Shown: positions 7,955 through 53,536 of the stretch, in pieces
Numbering within the stretch: the first letter of the stretch is position 1
Layout: each line of letters starts with the position of its first letter
Assembly (NCBI GenBank): GCA_029262055.1
Contig: JAJDAD010000059.1
Coordinates: forward strand, 1 to 64,000
Direction of reading: 5' to 3'
From: Candidatus Zhuqueibacterota bacterium
Lineage (GTDB): Bacteria; Zhuqueibacterota; Zhuqueibacteria; Oceanimicrobiales; Oceanimicrobiaceae
DNA length: 64,000 bases
Program-made: the position numbers and the translations under genes
Notes under the pieces: generated by a model
What the model saw: only the letters and a program-made list of their open reading frames with translations
What the model was told of the DNA's origin: nothing
Database searches by the model: none

Positions 7955-9436
7955 ATGAGAGCATTTCACAAAGCTTTAGTTGTACACACCGGGGTCATTC
8001 TACTGTTCGCAGCCTGTTCCGGGGACCCGCAGATCCAGAGGCGGTTTGTGGCCGAGCGCATGTTTTTTAGAGCGGGAAAGCTGTACCAGCAGGTCATGGT
8101 TAATCCCCGTATTGCGACCCACTCAGATTATAGTGCGGCCGTAGGAGCATATGAACATGTCTTGTCGGATTACCCAGGGAATACCAATGATGACCATATC
8201 GAAAAAATAAAGAAACAAAGTTTGGTCACGATCGCGGAACTGTGGCTATTGCAGGGTGAGATTCAGGCGGCGATAAGAACATACGATCGTTTCCTCGGTC
8301 TTTATCCCGATGATCCGGGCCTTGGGGCATTTGTGCATTTTGCCAATGCCCGCAGCAACGAACGCATCTTTAACCTCGACAAGGCCATTGCTGAATACGA
8401 AATACTGATCGATGACTTCGGTGAAGTCGAGGACCCGCTGCAGCCCAATCATAACATTCTGACGCTGCCCCTGAAGGTCGCCCGGTTGAAGCGTTCCAGC
8501 GGAGTTCCCTCCGGTCAACCACTATATAATGAAGCGTTGCAGTACTATGATTCGGTTATCGAGCAATGGCCGGGATCTCCTGCCGCGTTCAACGCAGCCT
8601 ATTACAAGGCATCCATTTTTGCCGACCAGCGGCGCTGGCGCAAAGTCATAACCACGCTGACAACACTGGCAAAAGAGTATCCCGATCGCGAAGAAGCGCC
8701 AAACATACTACTGTCTTTAGGCAACATGTATCTCGACGGTCTTGGTCAAACTCGTGAAGCCACGCGTGTGTTCGACGGGTTGCTCAGGAAATTCCCGGAA
8801 GACGAAATCTCGGGCTATGCGCATTTCGGCAATGCAAGGTCCCTGATCAAGAGCGGCCGTGCGGAGAAAGGCCGGGCCGGGCTTAATGAGGTCATCAGCA
8901 GCCATCCCGACAACCCAAACCTGTGCGCATCTGCCCAATTGGCGGTGGCTTCCTCATACGAAGAGGAGGGCAACTGGGAGCGCGCACTGGTAGAGTATCG
9001 CTGGGTGCAGGAGAGCTATCCGCTCACGTTTCAAGGGTTTTACGTGCCGACCTATATTGCCGAGTACTACCGCAAAAAAGGCGAGGCGTCGCTGGCACGA
9101 ACTTCATTTCAGGAGGCGATCGATCACTATACGCATCTGATCAGGAAGTACCCCAAAACCATGTTGGCCGGCACAGCACAGGAGTACATAATATACTGTC
9201 TGTCCGTTCAGGAAAAGTGGGAGCAGGCAGCAGAAGCGGCAATCTCGCTCAGAAATGTCCACCCGGGGTCACGAACCAATATCAGCTCATATCTCTTCCT
9301 CGGGCAAATCTACGAAAGCTCAAACAACGTCGAAAGAGCGATCGAGATTTATGAAAAATTTGCGGATGAATTCCCAAACCATCCCATTATCGGACAAATC
9401 CTGACCAAGGTCGACCTACTGCGCAGGAAAGTATGA
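7955..9436 (+). CDS. TPR-repeat lipoprotein
   Basis: The 493-residue protein has a signal ending in LFAAC, making Cys21 the likely lipid attachment site. The rest is a run of helical TPR-like repeats with the pattern A-x3-Y-(E/D)-x-(L/V)-x4-P. Good examples lie near 55-72, 105-122, 140-155, 255-290, 320-400 and 455-475. Such proteins commonly scaffold outer-membrane complexes, including polysaccharide secretion and attachment systems. Its TGA overlaps the ATG of prsK by four bases, which couples it to the regulatory pair. Confidence 0.82.
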   Translation: MRAFHKALVVHTGVILLFAACSGDPQIQRRFVAERMFFRAGKLYQQVMVNPRIATHSDYSAAVGAYEHVLSDYPGNTNDDHIEKIKKQSLVTIAELWLLQGEIQAAIRTYDRFLGLYPDDPGLGAFVHFANARSNERIFNLDKAIAEYEILIDDFGEVEDPLQPNHNILTLPLKVARLKRSSGVPSGQPLYNEALQYYDSVIEQWPGSPAAFNAAYYKASIFADQRRWRKVITTLTTLAKEYPDREEAPNILLSLGNMYLDGLGQTREATRVFDGLLRKFPEDEISGYAHFGNARSLIKSGRAEKGRAGLNEVISSHPDNPNLCASAQLAVASSYEEEGNWERALVEYRWVQESYPLTFQGFYVPTYIAEYYRKKGEASLARTSFQEAIDHYTHLIRKYPKTMLAGTAQEYIIYCLSVQEKWEQAAEAAISLRNVHPGSRTNISSYLFLGQIYESSNNVERAIEIYEKFADEFPNHPIIGQILTKVDLLRRKV

Positions 9437-11630
9437 AGCTTACATTTGTCACAATTATTCCCCTGTTGACCGCATTTTTCGCTTTTGCCGTTGCGCTGGG
9501 CCTCTTTTTCAGACCGGGGAAAATGTCGAAAGTGCAGCGCTACTTGTTCTTTGCGTCACCGTGGGTTGTGCTCTTGCAGGCCGGGACGTTCTTGTTGCTG
9601 GCAGCCGACCAGCAGAACCTGCGACTTGTCGGCGGCAATGTCGTGCTCTGGTCGCTGAGTATCCTGACCCCGATCTGTACGCACCTCGCGCTGCTATGGG
9701 GGGCCGGACAGAAGAATCTCTTGAAAAAACACAAGGTGGTCCTGGCTTTGCAGTGGCTTCTGTCGCTTTTTTTCTGTGCGGCCGCGCTTTCAGGAAAAGC
9801 TCTCGTAAGCACGGCACAGGAAACTGAAGTAAGCCTGAATCCAGGATTCTCCGGCCATTACTTTATGATTTACCTAATCGTGTCGAGCGTCTTTATCCTC
9901 TCGATTTTCGAAAGGAAACTGCGTTCGACACCCGCTGCGACCGGCTTGCGTTTGCCGACGATTGCCTACATGGCCACATTTGTCTTCTTCATCATAACCG
10001 CAAGCCAGGGACTTCTGATTCATGCCGTCCACCCTAACTCATTGCTACTCATCTCTGTTTCGATCTTTCTGGGTTTCACTTTCCCGCTTGTTCTCAGGTC
10101 GCGGACTGGTCGGACCTTTAATCCCGTACCCGAAAACCGGGAAACGGTCTATTCGTCATTCATGATTCTTTTGGTGGGAGCCTATCTGATCCTGATCGGG
10201 GTTATCGGGAAAGTCATCGCCACTGTTGGAGGTGACCTGCGGACTTTCTTTTCGGTCGTTGGCGGCGCGGCCGCAGTCTTGTTCCTATTGACATTCGTTT
10301 TCTCCTCTTCTGTAAAAACGAGAATCCGGAAGTTTGCAGACCGGGTGATTTACCGTGGAAAATATGACTACCGTGCGATTTGGGCCAGGTTCGGAGAGGA
10401 GACGGCATTCGCGCAAACACTAGACGATTTGTTAGGATCGGTTCTGGACAATGTCACGAATATCCTCGGCGTCGGCAAAGGTGTCATTCTGCTTCGCAGT
10501 CCGGGAGTGCCGGGATTGGTTCTGGCAAAAAAAAAAATATTAGTGGTGGCAAGAAGTTGGCCGCAGCGCTCCCGGAGCAATTTATTGATTGGTTATGGCG
10601 GTTCGGGGAGCCGGTGGCGTTCGGCAATTCTATCGTCCCGGCCGCAGTACCGGCCCTGGCCGAGCCGGCAAAACGTCGACTGCACGCCATGGGTTTGTCG
10701 GTGTGCGCTCCGTTGTCAGGCAAGTCCGGGTTGGTTGGAATAATGATCATAGAGAAGAGAGCTAAATCGTACTCGGAAAACGACCTGCAGATTTTGGGAA
10801 CGCTGGCAAATCACTCAGCGCTTGCAATTCAGGGTTTGCGGTCGCAGGAAAGTTTGCGGGAGGCGAAAGAGCTGGAATCGTTTCACAAACTATCGTCTTT
10901 CGTGGTTCATGACTTCAGGAACATTTTATCCATTATATCAATGCTTGCTGAAAATGCCAAGGTACACATGAATGACCGTGAGTTTCAACAGGACCTGACC
11001 CGGGCACTGGGGGATTCCGCGCAAAAAATACGGCAAACACTATCCAGGATCTCGCTGTCTGCAAATACCTTCGAAATCTCTTTGCAGGAACTGGACCTCG
11101 ACGGGCTGGTGGCCGAGGTGCTTGCCGGCATAACGGCCCCGCCAGGGATTCAGTTGGTCTCGACCCTCAAAGCTGACTGCAAACTGCCGACCGATGGCAA
11201 ACAGTTGCAAAAAGTTGTGGAGAATCTGGTCTTGAATGCCTGCGACGCAATTCCTGAAACGGGCGAGATACAAGTCACGACATTTGTCCGGTCCGGCGAG
11301 CGCCACCGCGATTCCGGTACCAGGCTTCCCGCACAACGATGGGCCGGGGTTTCCGTCTCAGACACGGGATGTGGTATGACAAACGAGTTCATACAAACAA
11401 AGCTGTTTAGACCGTTTCAAACGACCAAGCGCAATGGTCTGGGGATTGGCCTCTACCATTGTAAGGAGATTGTAGCTGCCCTCGGTGGCTCTATCAGCGT
11501 TGCAAGCGGGATTGGCAAGGGCACGACTTTTTGGGTTAGCTTGCCCATGACTGCAGATTCTCCGGTCGCTGACGCTGAATCAAATGGTATCAACAAACTC
11601 AAGGTCTCGACTGGATCCAGTTTATCATGA
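9433..11630 (+). CDS. prsK: PrsK-type membrane histidine kinase, split by a frameshift at an A11 run
   Basis: This is the sensor kinase of the PEP-CTERM/XrtA two-component system. The first frame (9433-10743) gives an N-terminal region with about eight hydrophobic segments and the start of a GAF-like domain. The second frame (to 11630) supplies the rest of the GAF region, the phospho-acceptor motif FVVHDFRNILS, an N box (ENLVLNACDAI), and the ATP lid motifs DTGCGM and GLGIGL. The two join at the A run 10527-10537: one additional A, or a -1 slip, would make a continuous product of about 730 residues, the usual family size. The stop overlaps the prsR start (ATGA). The break could be a sequencing error, a recent mutation, phase variation or programmed slippage. 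The domain identity is secure; the intactness is not. Confidence 0.85.
10527..10537 (+). repeat. Homopolymer of 11 A within prsK
   Basis: Eleven consecutive A residues lie exactly where the prsK reading frame breaks. The run contains the A-AAA-AAA heptamer used in -1 ribosomal slippage and is long enough for polymerase slippage. Confidence 0.95.
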
Positions 11631-13009: not shown

Positions 13010-13957
13010 ATGAGAAGCTTACACAGAACAGTTTTCAGGTTAGTCGTGCTGGTCATTTTCGCTTCGTTTTCACCAACGCAAGCACAGCACTACGTCATTC
13101 AAAAGGGCGACCGGCTTGCCATCAACTTTTGGCAGGAACCGGACTTAAGCACTGAGGTCATCGTCGGTCAAGATGGCTCGGTGGATCTTCCGGTAGTCGG
13201 CAGGATGCAGACTGAAGGTCTGACCAGCCTGCAGTTAGGCGAAAAGATCGTGGAAGAGATTTCGCGCTACCGCATCAACATAACCCAGGTATCCGTGATT
13301 GTTCGTGAATATGAGGGCAACAAAGTTTTCGTAACAGGCCATGTCGGGGCACCGGGACCACTTTCGTTCGAAGTGATGCCCAATCTGTGGCGTATCTTGC
13401 AGGAAGCGGGCGGCCTGCAGGAGAGCGCCGACCTCGAACGGATTTCGATTGTGCGTGGCGCTGACTCCGATGGCGAGATCATCAGTGTTGACCTCAGCCG
13501 GTACTTTGAGAATGGTGCGCTCGACCAACTGCCGCCGGTTTATGGTGGCGACACGGTCCATGTACCCGGTAATGTCACTCGCGGCGCGGCGAGCACTTCA
13601 CCATTTTCGGGAACCAGCGAGGTTTATGTCTTTGGGGCAGTTGCTGCGCCCGGCAGATATAGTCTGGAGAAAACCCTGGACGTGCTAGACGCCATCGTCC
13701 TGGCCGGCGGTCCAACCAATGACGCCAAGCTTTCGGAAGTAAGGATCTTGAATGAGCACGAGCAGGTAAACAGTATCCTGAAAATCAACCTGGACCATCT
13801 TCTGGACAAATCCTATCCGGGTGCGCCGCAACTGCATCCCGGCGACACGATATTTGTCCCGCGCAAAACGAGCCCGTTGGCTTTTCTTGCAACCAGAGTT
13901 TTGCTGCCGGTGGTGACTTCGGCCAGTGTGTTCTTGATCGTACAGGCAATTAGGTAA
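13010..13957 (+). CDS. Polysaccharide export protein (Wza-like, XrtA type)
   Basis: This protein should form or feed the outer-membrane channel for the polysaccharide. It has 315 residues with a signal peptide of about 25 residues ending in TQA. The polysaccharide-export domain follows (about 28-105, YVIQKGDRLAINFWQEPDLS), then two SLBB-like domains (about 107-185 and 205-285, with VFVTGHV-PGP and VYVFGAV-PGRYS). A hydrophobic C-terminal segment (about 292-312) is characteristic of the inner-membrane-touching XrtA export proteins. It lies six bases after prsR and ten before the chain-length gene. Confidence 0.9.
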   Translation: MRSLHRTVFRLVVLVIFASFSPTQAQHYVIQKGDRLAINFWQEPDLSTEVIVGQDGSVDLPVVGRMQTEGLTSLQLGEKIVEEISRYRINITQVSVIVREYEGNKVFVTGHVGAPGPLSFEVMPNLWRILQEAGGLQESADLERISIVRGADSDGEIISVDLSRYFENGALDQLPPVYGGDTVHVPGNVTRGAASTSPFSGTSEVYVFGAVAAPGRYSLEKTLDVLDAIVLAGGPTNDAKLSEVRILNEHEQVNSILKINLDHLLDKSYPGAPQLHPGDTIFVPRKTSPLAFLATRVLLPVVTSASVFLIVQAIR

Positions 13958-52411: not shown

Positions 52412-52726
52412 TTAATACCTGCTCCGCCTCTTTGGTTTCTGGCGATCACCACAAACCAGTGACCGAAAAGATTGCTGTAGGGCTATTCCAGAGTTCCAAC
52501 AATAGCCATATTTAACCGTGAGATTGTGAATCTTGCTCGATGAACATAGAGTGTCTACGTTGATGCTCACATGACACATGCGGAAATTCAAAGTAAATTG
52601 CGATGATTAGACTCGATCTGTTCTTCTAAACCCGGATACTCTGAGGATTCTATCAAGACGCATCAAACCAATTCCCTCCCGAAGCTGAACCTCAGCCACT
52701 ACCTGGCTTCGAGCCTCCTGGGACTT

Positions 52727-53536
52727 TTGCTTGCGCTTCTCTTTCTCCCGGCCATTAGAGAGTTCCTCTACGACTGGTCCCACGACGACAACTACTCGCA
52801 CGGCTTTCTCATTCCCGTCATTTCGGCCTACCTGCTCTGGCTGAAGCGGGAAGAGATTCGCTCCGCCAACAGGGAGTCGAATCTCTTGGGGTTATTCGTG
52901 TTGATCGCCGGCCTTGTGCTCAACATCCTGGGCACGGCTGCGGCTGAGTGGTACACAGTCCGGTTTTCGCTCATTCCGGTCTTGCTCGGCGCTGTGCTTT
53001 ATCTTTGGGGTTGGCAGGTCGTGCGGCATGTCTGGTTCCCCATCGTTTTCATTATCTTTGCCATTCCCTTGCCGTATACGTTGTTTCGAACGTTGACTTT
53101 CCCGCTGCAGTTGTTTTCGACAGAAATGACGCATGCGATTGTCACCTCTGCCGGTGTGCCGGCCTTGCGACAAGGGAATCTGTTGCACCTGCCGGGCTAC
53201 TCACTGGAGGTGATCGAGGCGTGTAGCGGTCTGCGGTCGATGATCGTGCTATCCGCTCTGGCGGCGTTGTTTGCCTACATAAGCCCGGGCGGCGCATTCC
53301 GAAAACTGTTCCTGTTCGCACTCGCGGTCCCGATCGCAATCGCAGCCAACATCATCAGGTTGCTGGTGACCTCGCTCGGGGCCCTGTTCATTTCCCACGA
53401 GTTTGCGGAGGGGTTTCTGCACGACTTTTCCGGCGTGCTGGTATTTATGGTCGGGCTCACATCCTTTCTGCTGGTGCATTGGCTTCTGGAAAAAGTCAGG
53501 CCTACGAACCGGCTACTCCGGGCGACACCAGGATGA
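52727..53536 (+). CDS. Exosortase (XrtA-like transpeptidase)
   Basis: This polytopic membrane cysteine protease/transpeptidase removes the PEP-CTERM anchor of secreted proteins. The catalytic triad is clear: Cys166 in VIEACSGLRS, Arg211 in ANIIRLLVT and His232 in FLHDFSG. NYSHGFLIP near residues 22-30 is a family hallmark. About eight hydrophobic segments are present. TTG 52727 is the only standard start, yet the frame runs open to 52607 and the first helix clearly begins upstream (ASSLLGLLLALLFLP), so the true start may be a rare codon such as ATC 52652 after GAGG, or the sequence has an error. The preceding 240-bp gap has nothing else. It overlaps epsI by four bases. Confidence 0.93.
   Translation: MLALLFLPAIREFLYDWSHDDNYSHGFLIPVISAYLLWLKREEIRSANRESNLLGLFVLIAGLVLNILGTAAAEWYTVRFSLIPVLLGAVLYLWGWQVVRHVWFPIVFIIFAIPLPYTLFRTLTFPLQLFSTEMTHAIVTSAGVPALRQGNLLHLPGYSLEVIEACSGLRSMIVLSALAALFAYISPGGAFRKLFLFALAVPIAIAANIIRLLVTSLGALFISHEFAEGFLHDFSGVLVFMVGLTSFLLVHWLLEKVRPTNRLLRATPG

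What the first reader, a model, noticed from the sequence alone, without database searches (positions are those of the whole stretch)
9433..11630. prsK sensor kinase split by a -1 frameshift at an 11-A tract
The N-terminal membrane half and the catalytic half of one PrsK-type kinase lie in different frames. They meet exactly at A11 (10527-10537). A twelfth A, or a -1 slip on A-AAA-AAA, restores a full-length kinase, while its partner prsR is intact and coupled. This could be phase variation or programmed slippage switching a surface-glycan regulator on and off, or an error.
Basis: partly seen in the sequence, partly recalled or inferred. Interest (0 to 1): 0.75.

Follow-up and report, generated by a model that had tools for sequence, protein, structure and literature searches.

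The report
Slippery A-tract splits prsK kinase gene
A bacterial sensor-kinase gene is broken by one base at a run of eleven A's, and because relatives keep the same break at the same spot, the cell probably mends it while reading the gene, by slipping on the A's, rather than having lost the gene.

Summary
In detail: A11 lies at 10527-10537, the membrane half of a PrsK kinase is in one frame, the catalytic half in the -1 frame, and prsR follows with an ATGA overlap. It is not a lone error. Of 8 family genomes held, 3 have prsK and all 3 are split there: G000 by A11, G001 and G007 (another genus) by A10, always -1. Both halves stay open at about 44% identity although synonymous sites look saturated. 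Intact prsK genes of three genomes of other families lack the tract. A second gene, a TPR protein near ExbB/ExbD-like genes, has the same design: 19 of 48 orthologues compared are split at one codon, all -1, all at 10-11 A, including 6 of 6 found outside the class. Among 74 runs of 10 or more A's in ten genomes, 12 strong frame-break pairs were found, all in these two genes. Full-length PrsK is most likely made by slippage at the tract, more probably by RNA polymerase than by the ribosome. DNA phase variation (precedent: Campylobacter flgR/flgS), two separate proteins, a pseudogene or an error fit less well. No reads, RNA or protein data were available.

The parts
9433..10743 (+). prsK, 0-frame ORF: membrane half plus first part of the GAF domain up to the tract (368 aa), then a 68-aa tail in the wrong frame
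   Evidence: N half TIGR02916 85 bits
10527..10537 (+). A11 slippery tract; codons GCA AAA AAA AAA ATA in frame 0, AAT ATT AGT in frame -1
   Evidence: same site A10 in L006 and L007
10536..11630 (+). prsK, -1 frame: rest of GAF, phospho-acceptor region, HATPase_c
   Evidence: TIGR02916 204.5 bits
11627..13003 (+). prsR, sigma-54-type response regulator; its ATG overlaps the prsK stop
   Evidence: TIGR02915 565.2 bits, cut-off 502.6
7955..9436 (+). TPR-repeat (lipoprotein-like) gene upstream, stop overlaps prsK ATG; a similar gene stands in the same place in G001 (L126)
13010..13957 (+). polysaccharide export protein downstream
   Evidence: TIGR03027 121.3 bits (below cut-off 180); Pfam Poly_export and SLBB

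Best explanation
prsK is one working gene whose full-length kinase (732 aa) is encoded across two frames and made by slippage at the A tract. Most likely RNA polymerase slips on the A run and adds an A in a fraction of transcripts (12 instead of 11, or equivalents modulo 3), joining the halves in frame. Unslipped transcripts give the membrane half without a kinase domain. Shown: a frame break at the same place in three species of two genera, the same register, runs of 10-11 A, and open, similar halves. Inferred: that slippage happens, that it is at transcription, its efficiency, and that the ratio of full-length to truncated product, with coupled translation of prsR, matters for exopolysaccharide and surface regulation.
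For: Orthologues in another genus have the same -1 split at A10, with the genes upstream in the same order. Codons in G007: AGT AAA AAA AAA ACT TAA; in G001 and G007 a -1-frame TAA overlaps the first two A's of the tract and a 0-frame TAA comes one codon after the AAA codons, so the switch must occur at the run. Halves of G000 and G001 stay open at 43.5% and 44.6% aa identity with third-position identity of 33-35%; kinase-region residues are shared with intact orthologues. Joined G001 PrsK scores 333.2 bits, over the 300 cut-off. TPR gene: 19 of 48 orthologues compared are split, all -1, all with runs of 10 or 11; fewest changes on the tree 6. Census: 74 runs of 10 or more A's in 10 genomes; 12 frame-break pairs with at least 100 aa on each side, 3 prsK and 9 TPR, all -1. 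For transcription rather than translation: a ribosomal A-AAA-AAA site needs only 7 A, yet all 22 splits have at least 10; in 13 of 13 class TPR splits the Leu codon before KKK is TTA or CTA, which lengthens the run (0-28% of the other Leu codons of the same genes, 18% in 29 unsplit orthologues); no shared downstream stem at 16 of the 22 sites tested. Bacterial polymerase slips efficiently on 9 A or T and adds A's (PMC5009743, passages).
Against: No RNA, reads or protein were available. Only 3 prsK cases, 2 of them from one genus. dN/dS of prsK between G001 and G007 is fairly high (0.052/0.108 over 215 codons of the N half, G007 being cut by a contig end, and 0.048/0.121 for the C half), and dS is far lower than in the TPR gene (0.46-0.55), so recent exchange or weaker constraint is possible. 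25 of 48 TPR orthologues are in frame without a long run, so slippage is not needed for that protein's function. 14 of the 74 long A runs lie in frame inside long ORFs, so long runs are not confined to frame breaks. All ten census genomes were taken because a split was already known in them.
Confidence: 0.62

Rival explanations
1. Ribosomal -1 frameshifting (or ribosome sliding) on A-AAA-AAA within the run makes full-length PrsK from an unedited transcript.
For: The -1 direction and the A-AAA-AAA heptamer fit in all three prsK genes; ribosomes slide on A stretches coding for lysine (PMC4363877, title and start of abstract in the listing).
Against: Runs are always at least 10 A, more than a heptamer needs; downstream 60 bases show no consistent stem (z from -2.1 to +2.1 at 16 sites); no upstream Shine-Dalgarno-like sequence is shared (by reading; G000 has GGGAG at 10502-10506, 20 bases before the tract, G001 and G007 have none there).
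Confidence: 0.19
2. DNA-level phase variation: replication slippage changes the run between 11 and 12 A, switching the kinase off and on in subpopulations.
For: The run is long enough; TPR orthologues in frame with A11-A12 (G004, G054, G033, G048) show that run length changes between genera. Precedent: the RpoN-type two-component genes flgR and flgS of Campylobacter jejuni are phase-variable, flgR through A and T homopolymers (PMC3930126, passages).
Against: All 3 prsK and all 19 TPR splits are in the same off register; no +1 state was seen among orthologues. The TPR gene has a match in 62 of 63 class genomes and is a poor candidate for being off in so many assemblies.
Confidence: 0.11
3. The halves work as two separate proteins, the second started internally.
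For: Both halves are conserved. Start codons occur in all three prsK C halves at +153 (ATG, TTG, TTG), +177 (TTG) and +207 (ATG) after the tract; in three f8 genomes the TPR C half happens to begin with ATG at the tract.
Against: Those shared starts lie 51-69 codons into the C half, past the conserved FIDWLWR segment, and would leave a broken GAF domain. Before +153 no start codon is at the same place in all three, and there is no ATG.
Confidence: 0.05
4. Decaying pseudogene or assembly error.
For: The frame is broken in DNA, and the sequence is a draft assembly.
Against: Different species assembled apart agree on the break; neither half has a further stop despite synonymous saturation between G000 and G001.
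Confidence: 0.03

Closest known systems
dnaX of Thermus thermophilus and the two-ORF dnaX with 10 A's (PMC5009743, PMC3711429, passages)
   Same: A/T run of about 9-10 used to make long and short products; in the reversed form the 0-frame stop follows the shift site and the long product needs the shift
   Different: DNA polymerase subunit; slippage reported from experiment in Thermus, inferred here
Shigella mxiE and spa13 (PMC5009743, passages, named only)
   Same: an extended regulator or secretion product made by transcriptional slippage, with effects on the next gene
   Different: type III secretion genes, not sensor kinases
Frameshifted genes of Buchnera and Blochmannia, and 'pseudo-pseudogenes' (PMC5009743, PMC1088944, passages)
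   Same: long A runs where slippage restores the frame, in 12-50% of endosymbiont transcripts
   Different: shrunken AT-rich endosymbiont genomes; here the split is shared across genera, for the TPR gene across families, at loci of 40-57% G+C (13 class TPR splits)
Phase-variable flgR/flgS two-component genes of Campylobacter jejuni (PMC3930126, passages)
   Same: RpoN-type two-component genes interrupted at A/T homopolymers
   Different: changes are in DNA, by adding or removing a nucleotide; only one register is seen here
PrsK (TIGR02916)
   Same: domain order and prsR neighbour, near exopolysaccharide genes
   Different: encoded in two frames

Membership tests
PrsK (TIGR02916) | score over curated cut-off 300 | tested here: inconclusive
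   joined window protein 299.8; joined G001 333.2; G007 not scored joined
PrsK (TIGR02916) | tandem with PrsR (TIGR02915) | tested here: met
   window 565.2 bits over 502.6; G007 552.3; in G001 the contig ends before prsR
PrsK (TIGR02916) | genome has an exosortase | tested here: met
   PF09721 at window 52724-53485 in G000; not found in G001 or G007
Programmed transcriptional realignment gene | run of at least 9 A/T at the frame junction | tested here: met
   A11, A10, A10
Programmed transcriptional realignment gene | run and overlapping-frame organisation conserved in homologues (criterion in PMC1088944, passages) | tested here: met
   3 of 3 prsK orthologues in the family, run 10-11 rather than one fixed length; not in orthologues of other families
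Programmed transcriptional realignment gene | heterogeneous transcripts observed | not testable with these tools
   no RNA data
-1 ribosomal frameshift cassette of E. coli dnaX type | upstream Shine-Dalgarno and downstream stem-loop (features recalled) | tested here: not met
   no consistent stem; no shared Shine-Dalgarno-like sequence in the 25 bases upstream, by reading
Phase-variable contingency locus | run length varies within a species, giving on and off states | not testable with these tools
   no reads or strains of one species
Phase-variable contingency locus | off states in both wrong registers among relatives | tested here: not met
   only -1 in prsK; TPR gene 0 or -1, never +1, in 48 compared

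The most novel reading that the evidence does not exclude
Bacteria of this phylum use A10-A11 transcriptional slippage as a standing decoding device: an old site in a TPR gene of an ExbB/ExbD-type complex and a later one in a sensor kinase, where the slippage rate sets the ratio of full-length kinase to kinase-less membrane protein and, through coupled translation, the level of the response regulator.
Probability: 0.3. Interest if true: 0.8.

Novelty: new member of a known kind. Interest (0 to 1): 0.62.

Why it matters
Gene finders would call prsK and the TPR gene broken. If slippage decodes them, a two-component sensor is expressed by slippage, for which I saw no report in the (partly capped) listings, and a broken frame has been kept in one gene across several families of a phylum. 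It gives a directly testable set of natural sites.

Tried and rejected
Internal start for the C half: shared start codons only at +153, +177 and +207; kept as a weak rival. Downstream RNA structure: no consistent stem in 60 bases at 16 of 22 sites, against plain mononucleotide shuffles; the six sites outside the class were not folded. Other split genes in G000: the 31 runs of exactly 9 A were viewed and none looked like a split gene (by eye on ORF lengths). Looser census (at least 60 aa each side): 15 pairs on the A strand instead of 12; the extra three are a transposase-like gene in G027 (L244, -1) and two short pairs in G064 (L256 -1, L257 +1) that overlap other ORFs and that I take for chance; read on the T strand there are 5 pairs at 3 runs, all in G017; at one (L239) a long ORF is in frame on the other strand, the other two were not followed. 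Runs in G052 and G066 were listed but not examined, and some census stretches are cut by contig ends, so pairs there could be missed. G063 prsK is in one frame with no run of 9 or more, but seems to lack part of GAF and the ATPase domain. G050's TPR gene has a further frame break upstream near a 5-A run, taken as an indel or assembly fault. In one search the prsR row compared a sequence with itself and is void. A control set of PrsK genes from another phylum was planned and not obtained. Structure prediction was not run.

Full report
Observation. The run of 11 A at 10527-10537 and the two frames are as described. The 0-frame ORF (9433-10743) reads GCA AAA AAA AAA ATA through the tract and ends 68 codons later; the catalytic half is open in the -1 frame from AAT at 10536. 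prsR begins on the prsK stop (ATGA, 11627-11630), and prsK begins on the stop of the TPR gene before it (9433-9436). The N half matches TIGR02916 (PrsK) at 85 bits, the C half at 204.5, the joined 732-aa protein at 299.8 against a cut-off of 300. The junction, residue 368/369, is inside the GAF domain, matched whole only in the joined protein (residues 327-467). A run of 11 A is expected 0.18 times in the window, and 9 of 100 shuffles had one; the genome has two.

Relatives. The window's genome (G000) is a draft of 114 contigs; its family holds 8 genomes. Three have a PrsK orthologue: G000, G001 and G007; in the other five the best matches are ordinary kinases at E 5e-19 to 2e-23 (one of the five, G006, is only 70% complete). 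All three are split. In G007 (L006) the sequence is AGT AAA AAA AAA ACT TAA, in G001 (L007) AGT AAA AAA AAA ATT TAA. In both, a -1-frame TAA overlaps the start of the tract and a 0-frame TAA stands one codon after the AAA codons, so the switch must take place at the run. The genes upstream in G001 have the order of the window (similarity by eye). Of the 60 genomes searched first, three had a match over the TIGR02916 cut-off, G037, G043 and G031 (383-405 bits), with open frames of 723-738 aa; they have no long A run at the site, nor do the more distant G054 and G021, though G021 has nine A's in frame a little further on. Outside the class, G069 and G063 (217 and 184 bits with the alignment of C halves) have no run of 9 or more in the stretches fetched. 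The broken form thus looks derived within this family and shared by two genera.

Constraint. G000 and G001 PrsK share 43.5% (N) and 44.6% (C) of residues, with third-position identity of only 33-35%, and neither half has gained a further stop. Kinase-region residues are shared with the intact orthologues. Between G001 and G007, dN/dS is 0.052/0.108 for 215 codons of the N half and 0.048/0.121 for the C half. This is purifying but not strong, and dS is several times lower than in the TPR gene of the same two genomes (0.46-0.55); a recent exchange of the locus is possible.

A second gene with the same design. Among the runs of 10 or more A's in G001 and G007, one other sat at a clear frame break: a TPR-protein gene, LKKK, one more residue and stop in frame 0, KKKN... 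in frame -1. A match at E <= 1e-8 is found in 62 of 63 genomes of the class (that of G061 is weak and that of G011 is cut by a contig end). I compared 42 of the 62 base by base, those with the best scores: 13 are split, all -1, in families f1, f6, f8 and f11; 4 have a run of 11-12 A and are in frame (G004, G054, G033, G048); 25 are in frame with 8 A's or fewer. Of the 20 not compared, 18 have an open frame of at least 444 aa, that is, both halves in one frame; the other two are G061 and G011. Outside the class, 6 of the 19 phylum genomes searched have the gene at E <= 1e-20, and all 6 are split, -1, at the same codon with 10-11 A. In total 19 of 48 compared are split, none +1; the fewest changes between split and in-frame on a protein tree is 6. 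These rows are related, so 19 is not 19 independent events. In G000 and G017 the gene stands near a second TPR gene and MotA/ExbB-like and TonB-like genes, in G000 also ExbD-like ones (names by eye, not tested).

Census. In ten genomes (G000, G001, G007, G017, G021, G027, G030, G064, G067, G069), 74 runs of at least 10 A were examined. All ten were taken because a split in prsK or the TPR gene was already known there, so those pairs are expected; the point is what else turns up. With at least 100 aa on each side, 12 runs sit where two frames on the A strand meet: 3 prsK and 9 TPR, all -1; 14 runs lie in frame inside longer ORFs. With 60 aa the count is 15, adding a transposase-like gene and two doubtful pairs, one of them +1. 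So strong A-run frame breaks are not general noise in these genomes.

Mechanism. All 22 splits have runs of 10 or 11 A. Ribosomal slippage on A-AAA-AAA would be served by seven. In the 13 class TPR splits the Leu codon before the lysines is always TTA or CTA; in the same genes these are 0-28% of the other Leu codons (0 of 50 in G017), and 288 of 1558 (18%) in the 29 unsplit orthologues. This makes the run at least 10 rather than 9. Outside the class the run reaches 10 mostly through a following A instead. No consistent downstream stem is seen at the 16 sites folded, and no upstream Shine-Dalgarno-like sequence is shared. Bacterial RNA polymerase is reported to slip with high efficiency on 9 A or T and, in T. 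thermophilus dnaX, to add A's (PMC5009743, passages), which would restore exactly the -1 breaks seen. A 2005 survey takes a run conserved in homologues as a likely sign of purposeful slippage (PMC1088944, passages). I therefore prefer transcriptional slippage, with ribosomal slippage as the main rival. The steps from slippage to kinase level and to prsR or exopolysaccharide expression are inference. [quoted passage not shown]

Phase variation. Run length does change between genera in the TPR gene, and flgR/flgS of Campylobacter jejuni are a precedent for phase-variable RpoN-type two-component genes (PMC3930126, passages), so replication slippage is not excluded. But a switching locus should be found in both off registers, and only one is seen.

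Internal start. Start codons at +153, +177 and +207 after the tract occur in all three prsK genes, but they lie past the conserved FIDWLWR segment and inside GAF, so separate translation of the C half would make a broken domain.

Print. In main texts, the terms histidine kinase and two-component do not occur in the GeneTack paper (PMC3711429) or in the held 300,000 characters of the 2016 review (PMC5009743), nor 'kinase' in the 2005 survey (PMC1088944); their supplementary gene lists were not seen and may hold such cases. The listings (several capped) showed no paper that I recognised as reporting a histidine kinase expressed by slippage. Subscription papers are mostly not held.

Verdict.

Noticed in passing
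L117:1360-2756 (G001), L128 (G007), L248-L253 and others: TPR-protein gene near ExbB/ExbD-like genes, split -1 at A10-A11 in 19 of 48 orthologues compared, including all 6 found outside the class.
   Followed up: yes
window 52724-53485: Exosortase gene (PF09721, 228.6 bits) in G000 only among the 8 family genomes; none was found in G001 or G007, which keep prsK.
   Followed up: no
L006/L007 against L117/L128: dS between G001 and G007 is about 0.11 in prsK but about 0.5 in the TPR gene: possible recent exchange of the prsK locus.
   Followed up: no
L244 (G027) around the 10-A run: Transposase-like gene (by eye) with a -1 frame break at A10, C part 69 aa.
   Followed up: partly
L254:1-1260 (G063): prsK homologue in one frame, open at the contig end, that seems to lack part of the GAF and ATPase domains, next to an intact prsR-like gene.
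   Followed up: no
L113 near position 2001: T11 at the end of a reverse-transcriptase-like ORF (by eye), about 143 bases from a contig end in G000.
   Followed up: no
L005 (G021), GAF region of its prsK homologue: Nine A's in frame a little downstream of the position of the window's tract.
   Followed up: no
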